Shown piece after piece: positions 647 to 19,226 of a stretch of DNA of 21,458 nucleotides. The notes under the pieces were generated by a model. The model saw nothing but the letters and a program-made list of their open reading frames with translations, was not told the DNA's origin and searched no databases. The DNA lies in the IMG/VR virus record IMGVR_UViG_3300030943_000188, positions 1 through 21,458 of that record; one strand, given 5' to 3'. Positions within the stretch are counted from its first letter, which is position 1. The number at the start of each line of letters is the position of its first letter. This DNA comes from a virus. The position numbers and the translations under genes are program-made.

Positions 647-934
647 TTATAACTTTAAAAATAACCTTTTTAGATTTTCATCATTTGACCGTGTTATTTG
701 AGGTTCCGAATCATCTAAATTAACAGAATCGACATACACTGGCAAAGTCGGTTTCATTTTTTTCAATGTTCCTTCTTGTGCAGAATATTTAACACCATTG
801 TAGGCAAATTCAAACCCGCTATCTCTCATACATATTATAAACTCTTCATTTGTTTCCGATATTAAAACAAGAGGTTCAAATACTTCTGTTAATTGGAACC
901 TTCCAAACTCATTCGTTTCTATTTTCATACCCAT
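647..934 (-). CDS. Hypothetical small phage protein (95 aa)
   Basis: I do not recognise a family. The protein is acidic in its C-terminal half and begins with alternating hydrophobic and polar residues suggesting a small beta-rich fold (FGRFQLTEVFEPLVLISE, then EEFIICMRDSGFEFAYNG). It overlaps the end of the upstream 925-1203 gene by ten bases, so the two are probably translationally coupled. Met1 (934) and Met3 (928) are both plausible starts, and the nearest SD-like sequence is absent, as elsewhere here. It is the last gene of the uvsX unit, just before the hairpin at 580-629. Position alone hints at a replication or recombination accessory role, but nothing in the sequence shows it. Confidence 0.7.
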   Translation of the reverse strand: MGMKIETNEFGRFQLTEVFEPLVLISETNEEFIICMRDSGFEFAYNGVKYSAQEGTLKKMKPTLPVYVDSVNLDDSEPQITRSNDENLKRLFLKL

Positions 935-1203
935 AAATGTTTTATAACTTCATAACTCGAATATTTCAGTTTTTTAATATAACCGAGTTTTTCTAATTCC
1001 GCTAGATCATCATCCAATTCCCCTGATTTAGCTATACGTACTCTAGTTTTCAAAGATACATCTCTAGTTTTAAACTCACCATCGTATCTTTTCTCTTGAT
1101 CAAGCATAAAGACAATCTCAAATAGAAGGTCTTCTATTTGAGGTGTCTCTATAATTCCTATCAAGTTTTTGATTTTAACAATGTTAAAATTTATAGGTGT
1201 CAT
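925..1203 (-). CDS. Hypothetical small protein with possible winged-helix-like C-terminus (92 aa)
   Basis: The ATG at 1203 shares a base with the TGA of the uvsX C-gene (TGATG), which supports this start over the TTG one codon earlier and points to coupled translation. The N-terminal half is helical and hydrophobic (EDLLFEIVFMLDQEKRY). The C-terminal part, with DDLAELEKLGYIKKLKYSSYEVI, has the helix-then-strand pattern of the recognition end of a winged helix, where a leucine-rich helix is followed by a beta-hairpin. That resemblance is only suggestive. T4 has gene 40 between uvsX and 41, but I see no similarity to it. Confidence 0.7.
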   Translation of the reverse strand: MTPINFNIVKIKNLIGIIETPQIEDLLFEIVFMLDQEKRYDGEFKTRDVSLKTRVRIAKSGELDDDLAELEKLGYIKKLKYSSYEVIKHLWV

Positions 1204-2825
1204 CAATCTTTAAAATGTTCGATTGAATTTCCTTCTAACGCATCAATAAATGATGTATCAATTTCAGCGTTTGTAACCATTGGAGCATCATTATCAGTAT
1301 CATCTTTCATTGAAGCTCTTTCAAGTTCCTCTGTCATTTCGAGTATATCATCATGACTGTTAACATCAGGTAGTTCAAAAGTTTTCTTTATCACTTTATC
1401 ATCAAGTTCTCTCAATACTTCATCTGTGAATACCTTTGCAGTAAAAAGTTCTATCAGAGGAATTTCTCCACCAAGATGTTTACATACTAACGTTCTTGCT
1501 GTTTCCTTTGGAAGAGCGAAAAGTAATTTACCATCTAGACTAGAAAATTCATGACAAGTTTTTTGTTCAGCTGGAGAGAGTTTAGAATGTTCCTTCTCTG
1601 TTAACGCCTTTCCTCTCACAACTCCACAATTCTCCCAAGATACAAAATTTTCTAATCCAACATATTTATTGATTGGTTTATAAAATGGAATATGAAATTG
1701 TACTTTAATTGGTTTTGCAAAACGATTTTTATTTGGAGTAACTGTTACAATGATGCCAACTTTTGCCTTTTCAACATTTTTTGATTTTGCAATTTCTTCA
1801 GCTTCCTTATCTTCCATCTTTGATTTAGATAACATGAATATGATTGAAGCATTATATTTAAGACCTCCGCCGCCTGCGATCGTGTTTGAAGGAAAATAAC
1901 CACCTATAACTGCATACGTATGAGCCAAATAGATACATGGGATACCATTCATTGCACAATCATTACCGACAACTCTAAAGGTTCTACGAATAGCCTGTTG
2001 TTTGGTCATATCTCGTTTATCATTTCCTTCAGTAGTATCTGTTTTTTCTTTATTTGAAGAAAGGTTACCCAATGAGTCAAGAACCACAATTACCTTCGGC
2101 GGAATTTTACCTTCCTTTTTCATATTGAAGAAGGTTTCATTTAACTTTGCCATATACGTAGCAAACTCCTCTATTGTTGCTATAGGTTCATGTCGAAGTT
2201 TGGCAGGATCAACACCAATTTTAGATACAAACTTTAAATCTATTGCACCTTCTGTATCAAAATAGATTGGGGTATACCCCATCATCTGAGCTTCGCGACA
2301 TATACTTAAAGCAATGAATGTCTTGCCTGTATTATGGCTGCTTATTCCAGTGCCTGACCAATATCTGTGGTTATCATGTTTTACCTCAAAATCATAAACC
2401 ACCTCATTTATACATTTTGTGATATTTACAACTCTTTGATACCCTGAAAGTGTTAACAAAAAATCTTCTTGTGTCAATTCTTTTGCAAACTTCCATTCTG
2501 TCATCGTTTCAAATTTATGATCCTCAGAACATTTAGTTTTAAAATCGAATTCTGTGGTAATATCATAAATAGGGCGCGAGTGTTTAATATAAAAATCCCC
2601 TACTTCATTATAACCATCAGGTGTAGCAATAAGGAATGACTTTTCTTGATAATTTTCAATTAAATCCTTAATTTTAATTTTCTTTGAGTTTGTTGATGCG
2701 TACTCATTAAATTTCATCCTAATGATTTCTTCTGAAGATTCAGAAATAGGTTTTCCTAAAAATGTTTTAAGTTCATTAGCATTAAAAACATATTCGAGTT
2801 CCTTTTTAATTTTTTCGATTTCCAT
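1203..2825 (-). CDS. uvsX: UvsX/RecA-like recombinase, C-terminal part, fused behind a split-intein C-fragment
   Basis: The first 165 of 540 residues are an intein C-fragment and the rest is recombinase. Visible intein blocks are a block-B-like TEFDFKTKCSEDHKFET (about 91-107, with the SxDH histidine), block F VVYDFEVKHDNHRY (142-155) and block G ending SSHN (162-165). There is no room between blocks B and F for a homing endonuclease. Thr166 would be the +1 nucleophile and begins TGKTF, the second half of the Walker A loop. The recombinase continues with a DTEG segment (190-193), Walker B VIVVLDSLGNL (245-255) and a Gly-rich GGGGLKYNAS loop. Joined to its N-part it would be about 449 residues, against 391 for T4 UvsX. 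It would form the presynaptic filament for strand exchange. Residues 1-60 are an unusual extension. The start is in frame with the upstream gene, three bases after its TAA. Confidence 0.9.
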   Translation of the reverse strand: MEIEKIKKELEYVFNANELKTFLGKPISESSEEIIRMKFNEYASTNSKKIKIKDLIENYQEKSFLIATPDGYNEVGDFYIKHSRPIYDITTEFDFKTKCSEDHKFETMTEWKFAKELTQEDFLLTLSGYQRVVNITKCINEVVYDFEVKHDNHRYWSGTGISSHNTGKTFIALSICREAQMMGYTPIYFDTEGAIDLKFVSKIGVDPAKLRHEPIATIEEFATYMAKLNETFFNMKKEGKIPPKVIVVLDSLGNLSSNKEKTDTTEGNDKRDMTKQQAIRRTFRVVGNDCAMNGIPCIYLAHTYAVIGGYFPSNTIAGGGGLKYNASIIFMLSKSKMEDKEAEEIAKSKNVEKAKVGIIVTVTPNKNRFAKPIKVQFHIPFYKPINKYVGLENFVSWENCGVVRGKALTEKEHSKLSPAEQKTCHEFSSLDGKLLFALPKETARTLVCKHLGGEIPLIELFTAKVFTDEVLRELDDKVIKKTFELPDVNSHDDILEMTEELERASMKDDTDNDAPMVTNAEIDTSFIDALEGNSIEHFKD

Positions 2826-2828
2826 AAA

Positions 2829-3131
2829 TTATGATTTAATTATTTTATGATTTTGAGTTAAATCAGATTTTAATTCGTATATTCGTACAAATTCATCGCC
2901 AACCAAACATCCTTCCTCTCCAGCAAGCGCCAAAGACCTACGGTTTGGTAATCCTCCAAATAAGCTGCCGCTCAAAGCCGCATTTAAAATATAACTACCG
3001 GTGCCAATATATTCATCTATTTTACAGAAAGGGGAATCTATAAGCATATCCCCATTAGGACTCACCTTATTGAGTATCTCATTCAAATCTGAAAAACTCG
3101 ACTGACTTGTTGCTGCAACTTTTTTTGCCAT
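2829..3131 (-). CDS. uvsX: UvsX/RecA-like recombinase, N-terminal part, ending in a split-intein N-fragment
   Basis: This 100-residue protein has 74 residues of recombinase N-terminus followed by 26 residues of intein. The extein part ends GGLPNRRSLALAGEEG, the first half of a P-loop (GEEG/TGKT). Cys75 starts the intein with CLVGDEFVRIYELKSD, a typical block A with catalytic Cys1. The gene then stops with TAA at 2829-2831. After one codon (TTT) the C-gene begins in the same reading frame. An N-fragment this short is atypical: most split inteins break at the endonuclease site and leave about 100 residues. It resembles the short-N class reported for AceL-TerL and for environmental UvsX inteins. 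Alone the protein cannot bind ATP, so function should require trans-splicing. It is the first gene of its unit. Confidence 0.9.
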   Translation of the reverse strand: MAKKVAATSQSSFSDLNEILNKVSPNGDMLIDSPFCKIDEYIGTGSYILNAALSGSLFGGLPNRRSLALAGEEGCLVGDEFVRIYELKSDLTQNHKIIKS

Positions 3132-3147
3132 GTGTTTAAAATGTTTA

Positions 3148-3155
3148 ATTTTATA
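3148..3155 (-). promoter_or_regulatory. Promoter-like TATAAAAT motif before uvsX
   Basis: TATAAAAT on the minus strand ends 16 bases before the ATG of the uvsX N-gene, in the short gap after the terminator of the upstream unit. The wider match to the helicase leader (ATATAAAATTAAA) and the identical spacing support a common regulatory element. No clear upstream box is visible. Confidence 0.45.
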
Positions 3156-3180
3156 TGTCTGAAAACTGAAAAGGTTTTAA

Positions 3181-3215
3181 ACAAAAAAAACGGGCATCTT
3201 GGTTAGATGCCCGTT
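3181..3215 (-). terminator. Strong intrinsic terminator ending the 6650-3245 unit
   Basis: On the minus strand an 11-bp perfect stem (3205-3215 with 3189-3199, core AACGGGCATCT) encloses a five-base loop and is followed at once by a run of eight T residues that overlaps the stem's end (3181-3190). This is a classic Rho-independent terminator. It lies about 30 bases after the stop of the 3245-3643 gene and separates that unit from uvsX. Confidence 0.9.
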
Positions 3216-3244
3216 GGGTTGGGTTAGTTTGTGTAGGATTTCAA

Positions 3245-3643
3245 TTATCCTACCAATTCTCTTAATGCGTCAGATTGATATTCTAATTTAAGATTCAACT
3301 CTTTAAATCTTGATATGATATTTGACATCATAGAAACAAAATCTGGTGAATCTGTTGCTGGTGATTTTTCATTTTTGTCATCTTTAATATATCTTGAATC
3401 AATATGTCCTATTAACAATTCAATTTTATCAACTGAATTTTTCATTGTATATATTTCTTCGCCTAAAATAGATACAATTTTCAAAAATTCAGAATCAAAT
3501 CTTACAGGTTCGTCCAACATCTTTTCATTTTCTTTTTCATATCCTGATGGTGTTAAAAAATCACCAGATTTACTTTTGCAACTGCATTCTTGACATCCCA
3601 TTTTTGTTTCCATTTCACTTGTTGGTCTTCTAAAATCTTTCAT
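3245..3643 (-). CDS. Hypothetical protein with N-terminal cysteine cluster and coiled-coil tendency (132 aa)
   Basis: I do not recognise a family. Near the N-terminus is GCQECSCKSKSG (residues 16-27), with three cysteines in CxxCxC spacing that could bind a metal, although no second cysteine pair exists in the protein. After a charged linker, residues 50-80 (FLKIVSILGEEIYTMKNSVD) and 105-130 (MMSNIISRFKELNLKLEYQS) look like amphipathic helices able to form coiled coils. It is the last gene of its unit, before the terminator at 3181-3215, and follows the 3653-4114 gene by nine bases. Confidence 0.7.
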   Translation of the reverse strand: MKDFRRPTSEMETKMGCQECSCKSKSGDFLTPSGYEKENEKMLDEPVRFDSEFLKIVSILGEEIYTMKNSVDKIELLIGHIDSRYIKDDKNEKSPATDSPDFVSMMSNIISRFKELNLKLEYQSDALRELVG

Positions 3644-3652
3644 AGTATATTT

Positions 3653-4114
3653 TTAAAAAGTTATTTCCATATCTGATGTGTCAACTACAATACTTGCTTT
3701 TCTTAATGTTTCAAAATATCCTATCCAAAACGCCATCATCCGATATTCGTTACCATTATCGAGCACGAATTTTAATTCCAATTCTGCATCTTGTAAGTCT
3801 GGTCGGTATTCCCAATTTCCTTCACCTACCCTAGCTTTATCTTTTTCATCTATTGCGTTACCGGAACTAATACAAAATAATCTTGGGACATTTACGAACC
3901 ATTCCTTATTAAGATATTCTTTAATTATATCGTAATTTTTCTTTCTATATTCCCAAGAATGCAATCTATTATACATTTCATGATGCTCTTTAATTCTTTG
4001 AAGATTGACCTTCGCTAAATTAATATCTTCCCATTCTATTTCTAAAAGATCAGAGGTATCATAATTATGTTCGCTATCACCTGTCTGATAATCAATTTTA
4101 ATTTTATATACCAT
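3653..4114 (-). CDS. Hypothetical phage protein (153 aa)
   Basis: The ATG at 4114 (MVYKIKIDYQTGDSEHNYD) is preferred over one 39 bases upstream, because the longer form would overlap the preceding gene and add a non-conserved-looking tail. I recall similar uncharacterised proteins from large phages of Bacteroidota, with the pattern IDYQTGDS, then LEIEWEDINLAKVNLQRIKEH, a central NVPRLFCI segment and a C-terminal MAFWIGYFETLRKASIV. No catalytic motif is evident. The alternating strands and helices suggest a compact globular alpha/beta protein. It shares the VPRLF/VPNIYG style of segment with its upstream neighbour, which may be chance. Confidence 0.75.
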   Translation of the reverse strand: MVYKIKIDYQTGDSEHNYDTSDLLEIEWEDINLAKVNLQRIKEHHEMYNRLHSWEYRKKNYDIIKEYLNKEWFVNVPRLFCISSGNAIDEKDKARVGEGNWEYRPDLQDAELELKFVLDNGNEYRMMAFWIGYFETLRKASIVVDTSDMEITF

Positions 4115-4130
4115 TGTTTTAATAAAGTTT

Positions 4131-4775
4131 TTAGTCGATGAATAAATTATCAATATCTTTTATAAATTTAGAATACCAATATATCATAACGGGATTTGGC
4201 GGATCAATTCTCTTTATTGTAGCCTCCTTGATCATATTTGTTTTTTCAACCAAAGAACATATTAAGGTGTTATCCTTGACTATAGGAAAATTATATTTTT
4301 CCTTACAACACACCATACTTCCAGATGGATATGGCATTTCATGAACTCCATATATATTTGGTACATTCACATAACATCCATCACATTGATTTATTTCAAA
4401 ATCAACATATATAAATGGATTATGCTCTTTAATCCATTCTTTAACAAAATCAACATTTAAAGTTGGGATCCCTGAAAATTCTGGGTAAACACCAATTATT
4501 TTATCATTGGAAATATAATCTGACCGTTCAGATTTCATTATTGTATTATCAAACCCAGTTAACCAATAATCTCCACATTTAATTGTTCCTTGGTGTGTAA
4601 CTATTAATTGGACATATTGATAGTTACAAAAACTATTATAATGTGCCTTAGTTGTATATGTTTTTGCATCTTTATCATCATCTAAAAATAGAAAATTATC
4701 ATATACATTAACAATATTTCCTTTATATAAGGTGTTTTTCCTTTGTATTGCATTTATTTTAATTAATTTCTTCAT
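4131..4775 (-). CDS. Hypothetical protein (214 aa)
   Basis: No function is recognised. The protein has an N-terminal KKLIKINAIQRKNTLYKGNI segment, a central aromatic region (GDYWLTGFDNTIMKSERSD) and an IYVDFEINQCDGCYVNVPNI region containing CDGC. Near residue 152 it has SMVCCKEKYNFP. The four clustered cysteines (CxxC and CC) might bind a metal, but the spacing is not a standard zinc finger. The start at 4775 overlaps the end of the upstream membrane-protein gene by 17 bases. It belongs to the same unit as the lipoprotein and the SEC-C protein, and looks like a phage accessory protein. Confidence 0.7.
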   Translation of the reverse strand: MKKLIKINAIQRKNTLYKGNIVNVYDNFLFLDDDKDAKTYTTKAHYNSFCNYQYVQLIVTHQGTIKCGDYWLTGFDNTIMKSERSDYISNDKIIGVYPEFSGIPTLNVDFVKEWIKEHNPFIYVDFEINQCDGCYVNVPNIYGVHEMPYPSGSMVCCKEKYNFPIVKDNTLICSLVEKTNMIKEATIKRIDPPNPVMIYWYSKFIKDIDNLFID

Positions 4776-4981: not shown

Positions 4982-5275
4982 TTAATTTTTTAAGTGAATT
5001 CTATTTAAAATCTCAATTATAGAAATATCCATAAGATAATCATAGTCAAATTTTATACGGCAATGATAATTTTCCAATAACCACCAACATACGCTTTGGT
5101 ACAGCGGAGCTGCGACACAATTTGGTATAGTAATAGATGAATTTTTTAATATCATACCGTGTTTATAACTTTGATTATATTTTCCTTCTAGATTATAAAA
5201 CCCATAACATGGTTCATTAAAACCTAATTCATTTAATTTTCTAGCTATTTCAACAGGTACAATTGGGCTATTCAT
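4982..5275 (-). CDS. Member of the tandem accessory family (APLYQ subtype), separated copy (97 aa)
   Basis: This is a relative of the genes at 7005-8896. Shared features are an N-terminal PVEIARKLNELGFNEPCYGF motif and a central CVAAPLYQSVCWWLLENYH motif, close to APLYQQVIEWLMLNHG in the 8507-8896 gene. It lacks the C-terminal TYEEALE helix of the other subtype and ends in IIEILNRIHLKN, which may be its equivalent. I recall many uncharacterised proteins of this pattern in Bacteroidota phages and prophages, but no known activity. It starts two bases after the lipoprotein stop. Its separation from the main array by about 1.7 kb suggests duplication followed by dispersal. Confidence 0.8.
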   Translation of the reverse strand: MNSPIVPVEIARKLNELGFNEPCYGFYNLEGKYNQSYKHGMILKNSSITIPNCVAAPLYQSVCWWLLENYHCRIKFDYDYLMDISIIEILNRIHLKN

Positions 5276-5637: not shown

Positions 5638-6099
5638 CTAAACATGTAAAAATCTATTTAAACAACATTTTTTGTATTTCTTACCACTACCACAAGGACA
5701 AGTCTCATTTCTATCAGTGTTAGAGAATTTTTCCTTGTATTCACGTTTAAGTTCTTTGTGCTCCTCTATTTTTTTATTTAAAAGATCTTTCCTGCGTTGA
5801 TCAATTGCCTTCTGTCCTGCATCTGTTTCATGAATTTCAACATTAGGATTTTCCGCCAAAATATCTATATTTGAATTTGAAAGAGTTAACATACTCTGAT
5901 AAAAACCCATCATTTTTTTGGATTTTGCTCTCTTGTATCTTTCTCTTTGTTCCATTAATTTTTCAAGAGGGACATCTTTTAAAAAATATTCAGATGTTAC
6001 TGTTCCGCAAATTGTACAACCTCCATCTTCACCTACTTCATGTAATGTGTATTCCTGACACTTTGTACACCAAAATCTATTCAATCTTCTAGATGGCAT
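5638..6099 (-). CDS. Protein with N-terminal zinc ribbon and C-terminal SEC-C motif (153 aa)
   Basis: The N-terminus has CTKC (11-14) and CTIC (28-31), a two-knuckle zinc ribbon. The middle is long and highly charged, with helices such as LEKLMEQRERYKRAKSKKMM and DLLNKKIEEHKELKREYKEK that could form a coiled coil. The C-terminus is a clear SEC-C motif, RNETCPCGSGKKYKKCC (130-146), with C134, C136, C145 and C146. This zinc-binding motif was first described at the C-terminus of SecA. It occurs in many bacterial and phage proteins as a protein- or nucleic-acid-contact module. With no catalytic domain, an adaptor role is plausible. It starts two bases after the DUF262 gene stop. Confidence 0.85.
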   Translation of the reverse strand: MPSRRLNRFWCTKCQEYTLHEVGEDGGCTICGTVTSEYFLKDVPLEKLMEQRERYKRAKSKKMMGFYQSMLTLSNSNIDILAENPNVEIHETDAGQKAIDQRRKDLLNKKIEEHKELKREYKEKFSNTDRNETCPCGSGKKYKKCCLNRFLHV

Positions 6100-6101
6100 A
6101 A

Positions 6102-6650
6102 TTATGATTTTAAATTATTAAGATGTTCAATATCTTGTGGAGTGCCGGCGAAGTTAATCATTTCAAACCAAACGATCTTATCATCATCTGATATCATCTG
6201 ATCAGGGTATTCATAAACTCGTTGACACCTAAACATCAATGAATTGAAAACATATTGAGATTCTGAATCTAAATCATTGAAAAAATATTCTTCACCATCA
6301 ACGATTATAGGAAATTGGTTATCAAAGAAAGACATAACGGCAGATATTCTTTGTTTGCCATCAATGATTTTGATGATACGAATATTTGGCTGAACAGTAT
6401 CATCTCTAAATTGGATGATGGATACTGGCGGAACTTCAAGACCTTTAAGTATTGAAAGTATAAGCTCTTGTTTTTGAGATAGTGTCCAAACAAATCCTCT
6501 TTGAAGATTCTTTCCCCTTGAAGGAAGAAATACATCAAAATCGACAACATCTCCGTAATGACTTGTTTTAAGATCTAAAATATCTAATGCTCCTACGGCT
6601 ATTTTAAATGGTAAATTTTTACGAACTTGAGAAATATTAAGCTTCTTCAT
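6102..6650 (-). CDS. Stand-alone DUF262 (ParB/GmrSD-N-like) protein (182 aa)
   Basis: The protein has the two hallmark motifs of DUF262: LQRGFVWTLSQKQELI (49-64), with the QRGxxW signature, and IIDGKQRISAVMSFF (95-109), with the DGxQR signature. These form the ParB/sulfiredoxin-like nucleotide-binding site seen in GmrS and related restriction and defence proteins. At 182 residues it corresponds only to that core, without the DUF1524 HNH nuclease domain of complete GmrSD enzymes. It could be an NTP-dependent nuclease, a regulator or a decoy subunit. The family fit is strong but the role in the phage is inference. It is first in its unit, nine bases after a TATAAAAT motif. Confidence 0.88.
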   Translation of the reverse strand: MKKLNISQVRKNLPFKIAVGALDILDLKTSHYGDVVDFDVFLPSRGKNLQRGFVWTLSQKQELILSILKGLEVPPVSIIQFRDDTVQPNIRIIKIIDGKQRISAVMSFFDNQFPIIVDGEEYFFNDLDSESQYVFNSLMFRCQRVYEYPDQMISDDDKIVWFEMINFAGTPQDIEHLNNLKS

Positions 6651-7004: not shown

Positions 7005-7379
7005 TTATAAAGATAAAATTATTAATGCATTTTTCAATCCTTTTTCAAGTGCTTCTTCATAAGTTTTAAATCTAGTTGCAATATCACCACAATCTTCACC
7101 AATCTTTGTATTAATTCTATACATCCATGACACATAATGAGGATCTGAATAATAGTATGAAGAAGTTACTTCAACAGAAATTTCATGTTTTTCTCTTAAC
7201 CATTTCTGGAGAAGAGATTGAGTAACTGCTGCAATTGCTTTTTTATTACAATAATCAAGCAAATAATCAAAAGATAATTCACCTGAAGATATTAGATAAC
7301 CATTATTACAATCCTTTTGATAAAAATCAGTATGTGTTAATAATTTAGCTGTGTCAAAACTTATTAATTGTTCTTTCAT
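7005..7379 (-). CDS. Tandem accessory-family paralogue 1 (LLQKWLRE subtype, 124 aa)
   Basis: The family core is visible in three places: N-terminal EQLISFDTAKLL, central AVTQSLLQKWLREKHEISVEV and C-terminal FKTYEEALEKGLKNALIIL. The segments between them (a Tyr/Asn-rich stretch before the centre and a strand-rich one after it) differ in length and sequence from the other copies. This suggests a conserved scaffold with variable surfaces. No catalytic residues stand out. It overlaps no neighbour (two bases from the next copy), consistent with one polycistronic array. The function is unknown to me. Relatives are common as uncharacterised proteins in Bacteroidota phages. Confidence 0.85.
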   Translation of the reverse strand: MKEQLISFDTAKLLTHTDFYQKDCNNGYLISSGELSFDYLLDYCNKKAIAAVTQSLLQKWLREKHEISVEVTSSYYYSDPHYVSWMYRINTKIGEDCGDIATRFKTYEEALEKGLKNALIILSL

Positions 7380-7381
7380 AA

Positions 7382-7762
7382 TTATAAAAGTTTTAATGTT
7401 TCTTGTAATGCTTCTTCTAATGCTTCTTCATAAGTTTTAAAATTTTTATTTGAAGTATTGATAAAATAATAATTTGAGCTACTTTTTATTAAATATTGAT
7501 AAAAAGCTACTTTTATTGTTTTATTAATATAATTATTTTCAGTGATACAATCTATATGAATTTCAATTTGATGTATATCTCTTAACCATTTCTGAAGAAG
7601 AGATTGTGTAGTACAATACAAATAATTAGGACGTCCAACCTCACTATAAATTATCTTTTCATTTTCATAGTAAACATTGCCTCTTCTTTGAGCATAACAT
7701 TCTGAAAATCCTTTACAATCTGCTAATTTTGCGGTTTCAAAGCTTATTAATTGTTCTTCCAT
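7382..7762 (-). CDS. Tandem accessory-family paralogue 2 (LLQKWLRE subtype, 126 aa)
   Basis: It shows the same three landmarks: EEQLISFETAKLADCKGF at the N-terminus, TTQSLLQKWLRDIHQIEIHI in the middle and FKTYEEALEEALQETLKLL at the C-terminus. The first landmark is followed by a CYAQRRGNVYYENEK variable part, and the second by Asn/Tyr-rich strands. It is closest to paralogue 1 in the first dozen residues and in the final helix. It directly abuts paralogue 3, whose stop is adjacent to this ATG. Short stretches of near-identical DNA encode the LLQKWLR block in the two genes, which fits fairly recent duplication. Confidence 0.85.
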   Translation of the reverse strand: MEEQLISFETAKLADCKGFSECYAQRRGNVYYENEKIIYSEVGRPNYLYCTTQSLLQKWLRDIHQIEIHIDCITENNYINKTIKVAFYQYLIKSSSNYYFINTSNKNFKTYEEALEEALQETLKLL

Positions 7763-8083
7763 TTAAAGTGATTTTAAGATTTCCTGTAATCTATGTTCAA
7801 GAGCATCTTCATATGTGTTAAATAATTCATTCCGATCCCATGATAATTTACCTCTAAAAATATAGTATTTTTGTTCATCGGAAGGAATTAAACATGGCAG
7901 TATGGCGACATGCATATTATATTTTTCCCTTAACCATTTTTGAAGAAGCGATTGTGGTACACACGGTAAATCGGTAAAATCACCATTTTTCCTCTTATCA
8001 ATATAGAAATCTGAGTGTTTTTCATCAAACCCTTTATCTTTTGCAACCTCAGCGGTTTCATAACTTATTAATTGTTCAGTCAT
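7763..8083 (-). CDS. Tandem accessory-family paralogue 3 (LLQKWLRE subtype, 106 aa)
   Basis: This is the shortest of the subtype. It has TEQLISYETAEVAKDKGFDE at the start, CVPQSLLQKWLREKYNMHVA in the centre and FNTYEDALEHRLQEILKSL at the end. The variable segment before the central block is shortened to about 15 residues, which accounts for most of its smaller size. It shares an ATGA overlap with paralogue 4, so they are coupled. The conserved helix-strand core and lack of enzyme motifs suggest a binding protein, but this is inference. Confidence 0.85.
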   Translation of the reverse strand: MTEQLISYETAEVAKDKGFDEKHSDFYIDKRKNGDFTDLPCVPQSLLQKWLREKYNMHVAILPCLIPSDEQKYYIFRGKLSWDRNELFNTYEDALEHRLQEILKSL

Positions 8084-8505
8084 AAATAAGTAATATTTTT
8101 AAGTGCATCTTCTACTCCATATTCCAAAGCATCTTCATATGATTCAAACTCTGGACAATTTTTATCATCTACTCTTTTATTTAATATATCACCATTTACA
8201 TTAACATAATAATAATGCAAGATTGGATCATAGAATGCGTAAACATGAATATTTTGAGTTTCTCTCAGCCATTTTTGTAAAACAGACAAATATGGGGCGG
8301 GTATTGAATATTTATGACCACCACCCCATCTTTCTATTTCAAAATCATAATTATTCGCAAACAGATGGTGTGTCGCAACATGTTGTTTATTAATAACGTA
8401 ATTTTCCAAAAGAAGACCATAATTATAATGATAAAAACAATCTTCCTCGAATCCTTTAAGTAAGGCTAAATCTGCCACTTCTGACTTTACTATTTTATCT
8501 TCCAT
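8080..8505 (-). CDS. Tandem accessory-family paralogue 4 (LLQKWLRE-like, 141 aa)
   Basis: A more divergent copy. The N-terminus is KSEVADLALLKGFEEDCFYH, the centre reads APYLSVLQKWLRETQNIHVY and the C-terminus is FESYEDALEYGVEDALKNI. It carries a longer variable region before the centre, including a His- and Gly-rich stretch (HVATHHLF, WGGGHKYSIP). The APYLSVLQKWL sequence is intermediate between the SLLQKWLRE and APLYQ subtypes, supporting common descent of both. It is separated from paralogue 5 by one base. Confidence 0.85.
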   Translation of the reverse strand: MEDKIVKSEVADLALLKGFEEDCFYHYNYGLLLENYVINKQHVATHHLFANNYDFEIERWGGGHKYSIPAPYLSVLQKWLRETQNIHVYAFYDPILHYYYVNVNGDILNKRVDDKNCPEFESYEDALEYGVEDALKNITYL

Positions 8506-8506
8506 T

Positions 8507-8896
8507 TTAAATGAGTTTTAAAGCTTCTATGATTGCTTCATTATATCCTTCGTTGAGTTTATTAGTGTCATGCCACTCATTATAAAATAAAGCATCATGA
8601 TTATAATCTTTTACACCCTTTATCATCAATCTATTATCATTAAAGAATACGGGTATCCACCATATTTTAATACCATGATTTAACATTAACCACTCAATTA
8701 CTTGTTGATATAGTGGTGCTAATATATATTTATTTTTATGAATAAGTGGAAAACCATAATTTACTCCTCCATAATTACACATATCGTCAGCAATTCTAAA
8801 CACATTAAGTTTTCCGTAATATCCTAGACAATTTTCATCAAATCCTTTTTCTTTAAGCGCTATTGCTATTTCATAAGGAACGAATAATTCTTTCAT
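8507..8896 (-). CDS. Tandem accessory-family paralogue 5 (APLYQ subtype, 129 aa)
   Basis: I place the start at the ATG at 8896 (MKELFVPYEIAIALKEKGFD), because that is where homology with the other copies begins. The longer frame to 8968 would run into the zinc-protein gene upstream. The centre is ILAPLYQQVIEWLMLNHGIKIW and the end is LNEGYNEAIIEALKLI. It is the upstream-most array member and, with the 4982-5275 gene, defines the APLYQ subtype. It begins 17 bases after the stop of the 8914-9177 gene. Confidence 0.85.
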   Translation of the reverse strand: MKELFVPYEIAIALKEKGFDENCLGYYGKLNVFRIADDMCNYGGVNYGFPLIHKNKYILAPLYQQVIEWLMLNHGIKIWWIPVFFNDNRLMIKGVKDYNHDALFYNEWHDTNKLNEGYNEAIIEALKLI

Positions 8897-8913
8897 AAAA
8901 AATAAAAATAATG

Positions 8914-9177
8914 TTAATAAGTTGTGTTTGAAAAATTGTCTGTAGAAAATTTTCGAAGTTCCCCACAATGTTTACATTCTTGAATATATAATAAAGAACT
9001 GAAACAACTGTTCCTAGTAAAAGCATTAGATTGTGAAAGAGTATTTATAACAAGCCATTCATGCCCACATTTTTGAGGATCCGGAATCCCTACACACACC
9101 GACTTGCCACACTTTTCACAATATTGATATCCATTTTTATCTACTTTACCATAAATATGGTAACAAAATAATTTCAT
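8914..9177 (-). CDS. Small zinc-binding protein (87 aa)
   Basis: Paired cysteine motifs suggest two zinc sites or one composite site: YCEKCGKSVC (19-28), CGHEW (37-41) and ECKHCGELRKF (67-77). The N-terminal MKLFCYHIYGKVDKNGYQ leader resembles small uncharacterised phage proteins in which a C-H-C-C knuckle is followed by a CNHKW segment. I do not know a function. DNA, RNA or protein contact is typical of such ribbons. It precedes the paralogue array in the same unit and follows the 44-residue gene at 9193 by 15 bases. Confidence 0.75.
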   Translation of the reverse strand: MKLFCYHIYGKVDKNGYQYCEKCGKSVCVGIPDPQKCGHEWLVINTLSQSNAFTRNSCFSSLLYIQECKHCGELRKFSTDNFSNTTY

Positions 9178-17712: not shown

Positions 17713-17838
17713 TTAACATTTATATTCCAAATAAATAAAACTACACAACAAAAATAAAAATAAAATAATGAAGTAAAACACAACCCTTAACATAAAATGA
17801 TAGTGCCTTATAAAATTATCATAATCGTTATACGGCAT
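17713..17838 (-). CDS. Very small single-span membrane protein (41 aa)
   Basis: The ATG at 17838 shares one base with the TGA of the polymerase gene (TGATG). The frame runs 41 codons to TAA at 17713-17715. After a polar N-terminus (MPYNDYDNFIRHYHFMLR) comes a strongly hydrophobic run, VVFYFIILFLFLLCSFIYL, long enough for one membrane span, and then EYKC. Translational coupling to the polymerase fragment is likely. The function is unknown. Confidence 0.65.
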   Translation of the reverse strand: MPYNDYDNFIRHYHFMLRVVFYFIILFLFLLCSFIYLEYKC

Positions 17839-18803
17839 CAAAATAGGTTTTTTGCATAAATTAAATTGGAAGGTATTTCCTGAAAACCCATTGTTTTGAT
17901 ATACCTATTGAAAGGTTCAACAATTACCTTTGCAAACTGAGCATCATAATTTATTGGCGGTGCAAATTCGTATGGAAGATCTCCTGGTAGGTAAGCAAAT
18001 ACCTCGCATTCTGCAGAAGTTGCATAAAATTTTACCTTATCAGATGTTCGTATATGTCTGTATTTTCCCTTCCATTTTGAATTATTCAATTGATAGTTAT
18101 AATTAGCACCACCTCTTACATGGTAAGGACATTTACTTGCAAGTTTAACTGAATTCTTATCATCAAGAACAAATTTTTCATAATCTCCAAGGCTCATCAC
18201 TTTACTTATATCCTCAGGACTTTGCATTATAAAATCCTTTTTATATTCCTTTAGCTTACGTACAAGATCAACATACCTAATGGTTTTTTGTTCCCTTAAA
18301 AGTTGAATGATAAGTTCATTGAGTACCTTCTTTGCAAATTTTGGTGTAGAACCTTGTGCAATTTCTATACCTACACATTTTATCTTTGTTTGTGGCGGGA
18401 ATCTCATACCTGGGTCTTTCCATGCAAGATCCAATATATATTTTTTCTTTGCGATCATCATAACAGAGTGTGATATCTTTTCGAGTTCCAATACTTGTAA
18501 ATTTTCAGTGTTGAATTTCTTTGCGTATTCATCAAATTTTTCATCCAACATTCCATCTAATCGATATTCCTTTATTTTCAATATGAAAGCAACACCATCT
18601 ACTTTCTCAGAAGGTACAAACCCACATGAATCCATCACTGGTTTAAATGTTACATATGAAGAATTATGTACTAAAATATCATTTGCTATAAAGGTATGAA
18701 ATTCATCAGCTACCTCTATATCATATACAAATTCATCAGAAAATTCTCCTATTTGCTCACAACTTTCAATATCTTCAATTATGTATTTTTTTTCTATATT
18801 CAT
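17838..18803 (-). CDS. Family B DNA polymerase (T4 gp43-like), C-terminal part, fused behind a split-intein C-fragment
   Basis: Residues 1-47 are an intein C-fragment: block F EFVYDIEVADEFHTFIAN (24-41) and block G DILVHN (42-47), ending in His-Asn. Ser48 is the +1 residue. The rest (48-321, 274 residues) matches the end of T4 gp43 after catalytic motif C. It has SSYVTFKP at the junction (motif C would be GDTD/S), IAKKKYIL like the KxY motif (117-124), GIEIAQGSTPKF (145-156) and CPYHVRGGANYNY (225-237). The length agrees with the roughly 280 residues following motif C in RB69/T4. The exonuclease, fingers and most of the palm are missing and must come from another gene whose product ends with an intein N-fragment. 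That gene is not in the window. Upstream is a non-coding region and then plus-strand genes. Confidence 0.9.
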   Translation of the reverse strand: MNIEKKYIIEDIESCEQIGEFSDEFVYDIEVADEFHTFIANDILVHNSSYVTFKPVMDSCGFVPSEKVDGVAFILKIKEYRLDGMLDEKFDEYAKKFNTENLQVLELEKISHSVMMIAKKKYILDLAWKDPGMRFPPQTKIKCVGIEIAQGSTPKFAKKVLNELIIQLLREQKTIRYVDLVRKLKEYKKDFIMQSPEDISKVMSLGDYEKFVLDDKNSVKLASKCPYHVRGGANYNYQLNNSKWKGKYRHIRTSDKVKFYATSAECEVFAYLPGDLPYEFAPPINYDAQFAKVIVEPFNRYIKTMGFQEIPSNLIYAKNLF

Positions 18804-18900: not shown

Positions 18901-18990
18901 TCCCTATAGTTTTTTAAAAGGGGGATGAAGTTACTACTTATACTCCTGCCGTGGGAAAGGTTTTGCATAGTTTAGTTAAAAAATGTTAAA
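18901..18990 (+). repeat. Direct repeat, copy 1
   Basis: This copy starts TCCCTATAGTTTTTTAAAAG. It includes a 31-base block (18920-18950) that is identical in copy 2 and begins GGGGGATGAAGTTACTACTT. It ends in an identical 20-base block, TTTAGTTAAAAAATGTTAAA (18971-18990). The spacing between the two blocks is the same in both copies, while the bases between them differ. A short CCCT/AGGG pairing flanks the T-rich start. Confidence 0.85.
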
Positions 18991-19137: not shown

Positions 19138-19226
19138 TCCCTTAAGTTTTTTAAAGGGGGATGAAGTTACTACTTATACTCCTGCCACGAGAAAGGTTTC
19201 GTCTTATTTAGTTAAAAAATGTTAAA
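19138..19226 (+). repeat. Direct repeat, copy 2
   Basis: This copy starts TCCCTTAAGTTTTTTAAAGG. It has the identical 31-base block at 19156-19186 and the identical 20-base block at 19207-19226, each offset by 236 bases from copy 1. One A is missing before the G-run. Differences between the copies concentrate after CTGCC and in the following GTTT region. It ends about 50 bases before the glycosyltransferase ATG. Confidence 0.85.

What the first reader, a model, noticed from the sequence alone, without database searches (positions are those of the whole stretch)
1203..3131. UvsX is split inside its P-loop by a split intein with a very short N-fragment
The upstream gene ends with GEEG followed by an intein block A of only 26 residues (Cys1 in CLVGDEFVRIYELKSD). 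The downstream gene starts with a 165-residue intein C-fragment ending SSHN, followed by TGKT. Joining the exteins restores GEEGTGKT, a Walker A loop. Most natural split inteins break at the endonuclease site. A 26-residue N-fragment places this one with the rare short-N class (AceL-TerL and some environmental UvsX inteins). It could be a new natural trans-splicing pair with a short N-part.
Basis: partly seen in the sequence, partly recalled or inferred. Interest (0 to 1): 0.92.

Follow-up and report, generated by a model that had tools for sequence, protein, structure and literature searches.

The report
VidaL-type split intein in phage UvsX
A large phage makes its DNA-recombination protein UvsX in two pieces that are predicted to weld themselves together through a self-removing split intein with an unusually short front half; the kind is already known (the VidaL intein, in the same gene at the same spot), but this copy carries an extra three-helix piece, lacks the homing nuclease that usually sits between the halves, and helps show how split and unsplit inteins turn into one another.

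Summary
ORF 2829-3131(-) is the first 74 residues of UvsX plus a 26-residue Int-N. ORF 1203-2825(-) is a 165-residue Int-C (ending SSHN) plus the remaining 375 residues of UvsX. The splice would restore GEEG|TGKT, the uninterrupted Walker A loop found at this position in related phages. Only TAA-TTT separates the two ORFs, in one frame; three other IMG/VR contigs carry the same junction.

It is a natural atypically split intein of the VidaL type (split after strand beta2), not AceL-TerL type. VidaL (PDB 6VGV) is the closest solved relative by sequence and fold and sits at the same UvsX site. About 50 relatives at this site (mostly UvsX, also PhoH and AAA genes) occur in three states: split around a homing endonuclease (HEN), split without HEN (four with HEN remains in the gap), or fused (cis). 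The window's two nearest relatives are one HEN-bearing split and one cis intein, so it is best read as a split intein that lost its HEN.

New here: a three-helix subdomain at the split point, the smallest gap seen (3 nt), and the mixed-state clade. Splicing itself was not tested. New variant of a known kind; interest moderate.

The parts
2910..3131 (-). N-extein: UvsX residues 1-74, ending ...LALAGEEG (first half of the Walker A loop)
   Evidence: ORF; PHROG_97 UvsX 4e-9 at profile 13-84; uninterrupted homologues L082-L092 etc.
2832..2909 (-). Int-N, 26 residues CLVGDEFVRIYELKSDLTQNHKIIKS: block A core (about 16 residues, with Cys1) plus a 10-residue tail
   Evidence: profile of relatives' Int-N E 7e-7, top of 790 segments; same length and same KS* end as L017 Int-N
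2826..2831 (-). junction TAA-TTT: stop of the N gene and 3-nt spacer, in the same frame as the ATG of the C gene
   Evidence: unchanged in L001-L003
2691..2825 (-). N-terminal extension of Int-C (about residues 1-45): three-helix subdomain inserted at the split point, starting at ATG 2825
   Evidence: AlphaFold2 helices 31-41, 44-51, 60-73 of the joined chain, pLDDT mostly 96-98; homologous in L016-L020, L033, L078, absent from VidaL
2331..2690 (-). HINT core of Int-C (residues 46-165): block B His103, block F Asp145, His164-Asn165 at the splice junction
   Evidence: alignments A2, A5; Pfam Intein_splicing 2.8e-5, below its cutoff; VidaL 4.7e-13
1203..2330 (-). C-extein: UvsX from TGKT (Thr at +1) to the C-terminus, 375 aa, with stop codon
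   Evidence: PHROG_97 1.1e-38 at profile 83-306; Pfam RecA 4.1e-8; PDB 9GBG phage UvsX 6.3e-38

Best explanation
UvsX is encoded as two adjacent genes whose products are joined by protein trans-splicing. Inferred steps: the 26-residue Int-N at the end of the N polypeptide completes the HINT fold of the 165-residue Int-C; Cys1 makes the thioester, Thr+1 takes over the acyl chain, Asn165 cyclises with help from His164 and the block B and F residues, and GEEG is ligated to TGKT, restoring the P-loop without which UvsX should have no ATPase. The intein is a VidaL-type natural split intein (S1 split) at the homing site that VidaL relatives use. It is best read as the HEN-less descendant of a 'fractured gene' in which a homing endonuclease ORF lay between the halves. 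When the HEN was deleted, the Int-N stop and the Int-C start were left 3 nt apart. In the relative L016 the halves are fused into a cis intein. Shown: the genes, their homology, the homologous fragment ends in L017, the catalytic residues, the predicted fold, relatives with an empty site, and HEN remains in other members. Inferred: splicing itself and the order of HEN loss.
For: Closest solved relative by sequence is VidaL (profile 1.8e-43, window Int-C alone 4.7e-13) and by fold VidaL 6VGV (E 3e-11, rmsd 1.2 A); its construct is flanked by ESG and SGK, i.e. the same site. AlphaFold2 of the joined chain: pLDDT 94.8, pTM 0.87, with the split in the weakest-confidence stretch. Cys1, block B His, Asp145, His164, Asn165 and Thr+1 present. 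Uninterrupted GEEG|TGKT in close relatives. L017 has an Int-N of the same length ending KS* and an Int-C with the same extension and start, 1.2 kb apart around a HEN. Clade window+L016+L017 supported 99/88 and 99/96; L018, L019, L020, L078 are all split with HEN. HEN remains in the gaps of L022, L063, L065, L039.
Against: No splicing was observed. Int-N without extein and with a broad profile is only weakly recognised (E 0.44), though best-ranked and in register. The order within window/L016/L017 is unresolved (AU p 0.35 for L016+L017). Int-C is only 36% identical to VidaL (42 of 116). No HEN remains can be seen in the window's 3-nt gap, so HEN loss here is by inference from relatives.
Confidence: 0.92

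Rival explanations
1. It is really a cis intein interrupted by one in-frame stop codon: the TAA is read through (or is an assembly error), and one long precursor splices in cis.
For: The two ORFs share a frame with only TAA-TTT between them. The near relative L016 is a cis intein of the same design, so a fused chain is tolerated.
Against: L017's Int-N stop and Int-C start are homologous to the window's and lie 1.2 kb apart around a HEN. TAA ends 30 of 42 ORFs in this contig, gaps of 0-4 nt between genes are usual here, and the ATG has an AT-rich leader like its neighbours. Four contigs agree on the junction.
Confidence: 0.06
2. The intein no longer splices and uvsX is a dying, split pseudogene.
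For: The N gene encodes only 74 aa of UvsX and no HEN is adjacent, so homing cannot maintain the element.
Against: Catalytic residues and +1 Thr are intact; both exteins align along their length without frameshifts; four contigs show no decay; HEN-less split and cis members are common in the family.
Confidence: 0.03
3. The two pieces work as a non-covalent two-subunit UvsX and the intein is bypassed.
For: None direct (no call bears on it).
Against: The break lies inside the Walker A loop, and the 26 and 165 extra residues form a complete HINT domain with all catalytic residues.
Confidence: 0.01

Closest known systems
VidaL split intein (PDB 6VGV/6VGW)
   Same: same fold, same split position (after strand beta2), flanked by ESG|...|SGK, i.e. 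the same UvsX P-loop site; block A, B, F, G residues shared
   Different: Int-C core 36% identical; VidaL has a 16-aa Int-N and lacks the three-helix extension; the window's Int-N has a 10-residue tail and +1 is Thr, not Ser
Pseudomonas phage PA5oct UvsX (gp276 / gp275 / gp274)
   Same: same gene, same insertion site and split point (17-aa Int-N; L010)
   Different: a 477-aa HEN ORF lies between the halves; no helical extension; in a different branch of the tree
PolB16 OarG intein
   Same: natural S1 split, 15-aa Int-N and 168-aa Int-C (PMC10189870)
   Different: in PolB, with Ser1 and Ser+1 (cysteine-independent)
AceL-TerL and GOS-TerL split inteins
   Same: natural split with a short Int-N (25 aa in AceL-TerL)
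   Different: split after helix alpha1 (S2; PMC13014065); in the window alpha1 belongs to Int-C
Fractured genes with split inteins and a HEN (Dassa et al. 2009, from memory; paper not held)
   Same: relatives L017-L020, L033, L078 and PA5oct have exactly this arrangement
   Different: the window lacks the HEN and the halves are 3 nt apart

Membership tests
Inteins (HINT domain, class 1 residues) | HINT fold | tested here: met
   AlphaFold2 pLDDT 94.8; top PDB matches are inteins
Inteins (HINT domain, class 1 residues) | Cys1/Ser1, block B His, block F Asp/His, C-terminal His-Asn, Cys/Ser/Thr at +1 | tested here: met
   C1, H103, D145, H153, H164, N165, T+1 in alignment A5
Inteins (HINT domain, class 1 residues) | extein rejoined across the insert matches intein-free homologues | tested here: met
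   GEEG|TGKT uninterrupted in L082, L086, L087, L090, L091, L092
VidaL-type (S1) natural split intein | Int-N ends after strand beta2, before helix alpha1 | tested here: met
   model: strand 7-12, chain break at residues 26-28, alpha1 at 80-86
VidaL-type (S1) natural split intein | two separate genes | tested here: met
   in-frame TAA then ATG; same junction in three other contigs
VidaL-type (S1) natural split intein | inserted at the UvsX P-loop GxxG|[ST]GK[ST] | tested here: met
   VidaL construct flanks ESG/SGK; window GEEG/TGKT
VidaL-type (S1) natural split intein | trans-splicing activity | not testable with these tools
   reported for VidaL in the literature (PMC13014065, PMC10264447), not for this pair
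AceL-TerL-type (S2) split intein | Int-N includes helix alpha1 | tested here: not met
   alpha1 (KIKIKDLIENY) is in Int-C
Fractured gene with HEN | free-standing HEN ORF between the intein halves | tested here: not met
   3-nt gap; no match to L017's HEN anywhere in the window

The most novel reading that the evidence does not exclude
The window is a frozen step in a natural split-to-cis conversion: HEN deletion left the halves of a split intein 3 nt apart and in frame, and in the relative L016 the same halves have fused back into a cis intein, so that at this homing site split inteins repeatedly re-fuse once the HEN is gone.
Probability: 0.55. Interest if true: 0.7.

Novelty: new variant of a known kind. 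Interest (0 to 1): 0.55.

Why it matters
Short-N split inteins are used for protein semisynthesis, and few natural ones have been characterised (15-37 aa Int-N; PMC13014065). This locus and its relatives give dozens of natural P-loop inteins, many of them split pairs, including a subgroup with a helical module at the split point for which I found no report.

More generally, one homing site shows split-with-HEN, split-with-HEN-remains, split-without-HEN and cis inteins side by side. That makes the question of how split inteins arise and revert directly testable, by comparison and by adding or removing one stop codon in this pair.

Tried and rejected
Considered and dropped:
- Recoding of TAA: TAA is the normal stop of this contig (30 of 42 ORFs). 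The distantly related Lak phages use code 15 (TAG=Q), not a TAA code.
- Assembly error: three other contigs agree.
- AceL-type (S2) filing: rejected by the model.
- Horizontal transfer argued from a conflict between intein and UvsX trees: the first intein tree paired window with L016 (100/96) while the UvsX tree groups L016 with L017 and intein-free genes, but the AU test does not reject L016+L017 for the intein (p 0.35), so I do not claim it.
- Function of the three-helix extension: only a sub-threshold Pfam hit (DUF3781, E 0.0025); left open.
- HEN family: no Pfam match above cutoff, PHROG_22677 of unknown function; a model of L017's HEN (pTM 0.41, C-terminal domain mostly over 90 pLDDT) gives only weak PDB matches, among them AbaSI and Vsr (E 0.05-0.4), so 'Vsr-like' is a suggestion.
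- Bacterial genome collection: one weak partial match, no host information.
- Literature on this UvsX site: none found in the held library; the MIJ3 paper describes only the PolB split intein.

Full report
1. What is there. On the minus strand, ORF 2829-3131 (100 aa) and ORF 1203-2825 (540 aa) are consecutive and share a frame; only TAA-TTT lies between the last codon of the first and the ATG of the second. The first is 74 residues of UvsX ending LALAGEEG, then CLVGDEFVRIYELKSDLTQNHKIIKS. The second is a 165-residue intein C-part ending SSHN, then TGKT and the rest of UvsX. Three other IMG/VR contigs carry the same stretch at 99.96-99.97% identity, with no difference at the junction.

2. It is UvsX. 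PHROG_97 (UvsX) matches the two genes at consecutive profile positions (13-84, 83-306). The nearest solved relatives of the extein are phage UvsX and RecA proteins. Many close relatives have no insert and read ...AGEEG|TGKT... across the site (in the UvsX tree the window lies in a 13-row clade, 99/98, ten of whose rows are intein-free).

3. It is an intein. A profile of relatives' Int-C, window excluded, finds the second ORF at 7.6e-40; N-extein plus Int-N gives 1.8e-19. Int-N alone, against a profile of its subgroup, gives 7e-7 and ranks first of 790 segments. The joined chain (TAA read as Q only to let both halves be folded together) is predicted at pLDDT 94.8, pTM 0.87; the weakest block is residues 21-30, exactly around the natural break. 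Foldseek's best PDB match is VidaL, 1.2 A rmsd, followed by gp41-1 and DnaB inteins. Cys1, His103, Asp145, His153, His164, Asn165 (Int-C numbering except Cys1) and Thr+1 are present.

4. Which kind. Published short-N splits fall after strand beta2 (S1: VidaL, 16 aa; PolB16, 15 aa Int-N and 168 aa Int-C) or after helix alpha1 (S2: AceL, GOS TerL) (PMC13014065, PMC10189870). Here strand 7-12 is followed by the tail and break, and alpha1 (residues 80-86) lies in Int-C: S1. The VidaL construct in the PDB is flanked by ESG and SGK, which is the UvsX P-loop site; so VidaL and this intein occupy the same bond of the same gene. Their Int-C cores are 36% identical (42 of 116).

5. What differs from VidaL. 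The window's Int-N has a 10-residue tail after the block A core. Its Int-C starts with a roughly 45-residue extension that the model folds confidently as three helices, inserted between strand beta2 and the following strand. The extension is homologous in L016, L017, L018, L019, L020, L033 and L078 and absent from VidaL and the larger branch. Its function is unknown; since the cis relative L016 keeps it, it is probably not merely a fragment-docking device.

6. The family. A scan of IMG/VR with the Int-C alignment gave 65 loci, two more came from a second scan, and PA5oct and Salicola phage SCTP-2 from phage records. At the same site they occur as: split with a HEN-sized ORF in a gap of about 1.1-1.5 kb (L017-L020, L024, L027, L029, L031, L033, L036, L041, L055, L068, L074, L078, PA5oct); split without an intact HEN (window 3 nt; L058, L061, L079, L065, L039, L063, L022 about 29-251 nt; L073 141 nt); and cis (22 rows, e.g. 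L016, L023, L028, SCTP-2). Most hosts are UvsX, but L020 is a PhoH-like ATPase and L073 an AAA-like ATPase, always inside a P-loop. On the tree the states need 17-18 changes, so they interconvert often.

7. Direction. In four HEN-less splits the gap still encodes the C-terminal end of the HEN (L022 2.5e-34, L063 2.5e-9, L065 1e-6, L039 1e-6); L022's intein is almost identical to those of L024 and L025, which have a HEN ORF in a 1.2-kb gap. So HEN deletion leaving a split intein is seen directly in the family. In the window's own clade (window, L016, L017: 99/88, and 99/96 with full-length inteins) L017 is split with a HEN that overlaps both halves, L016 is cis, and the neighbouring L018, L019, L020 and L078 are all split with HEN. 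The window's Int-N has the same 26-residue length and KS* end as L017's, and the Int-C starts correspond. Hence the window's stop and start are best read as the original fragment ends, brought together by HEN loss, and L016 as a re-fusion. The branching order of the three is not resolved (AU p 0.35), so one or two HEN losses are both possible; root and direction are inferred by parsimony.

8. Expression. Gaps of 0-4 nt between genes are usual in this contig and starts mostly have AT-rich leaders without an obvious Shine-Dalgarno motif; ATG 2825 fits. Occasional readthrough of TAA would give a cis precursor that, judged from L016, could splice too; the two routes are not exclusive.

9. What is not shown. 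No splicing was observed; AlphaFold2 on a joined chain says nothing about affinity of separate halves. The Vsr-like nature of the HEN is only a weak fold match. The host is unknown. The papers that first described VidaL and the fractured genes are not in the library; statements about them rest on citing papers or memory, marked as such.

10. Verdict.

Noticed in passing
window 17838-18803 (-): C-terminal part of DNA polymerase B beginning with a 47-aa Int-C (18663-18803) at the YxDTD|S motif: a second split gene in the same contig. No PolB N-part was found in the window; in L016's phage the same PolB is one ORF with a cis intein (L160 805-2445), in L017's phage N and C parts are separate.
   Followed up: partly
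L010 (NC_071039.1, Pseudomonas phage PA5oct) 1251-4257: uvsX of PA5oct is split at the P-loop by a VidaL-type intein: gp276 carries the N-extein and a 17-aa Int-N, gp275 is a HEN-like ORF, gp274 Int-C plus UvsX. Annotated as hypothetical proteins and a UvsX-like recombinase.
   Followed up: partly
L012 (LR756500.1) 704-3966 and L020: PhoH-like ATPase gene split the same way inside its P-loop, with HEN and with the same helical Int-C extension.
   Followed up: partly
L073 3750-7355 and L062: AAA-like ATPase genes with the same intein family in the P-loop; in L073 split, with +1 Cys.
   Followed up: no
L008 (MK250024.1, Lak-B5) 1521-4654: Lak-B uvsX is a fractured gene at another site: a longer Int-N of roughly 100 aa, a 463-aa ORF, then Int-C plus UvsX C-part.
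   Followed up: no
L013 2830-4815 and L079 4995-6720: UvsX with a second intein at a downstream site (SGG|C... / SHN|SG), cis in SCTP-2 and split in L079.
   Followed up: no
window 18911-18990 and 19147-19226: 80-nt direct repeat (89% identical, 236 nt apart) in the non-coding stretch upstream of the PolB C-part; no Rfam match.
   Followed up: no
window 7005-8968 and 4982-5275 (-): Array of related small proteins of unknown function (motifs like SLLQKWLRE and TYEEALE; DNA repeats).
   Followed up: no
L022 4669-4922: Truncated HEN C-terminal end between the halves of a split UvsX intein: a HEN in the course of being lost.
   Followed up: yes
window 5638-6650 (-): GmrSD_N domain protein (6102-6650) next to a gene ending in a CPCGSGKKYKKCC (SEC-C-like) motif (5638-6099).
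   Followed up: no
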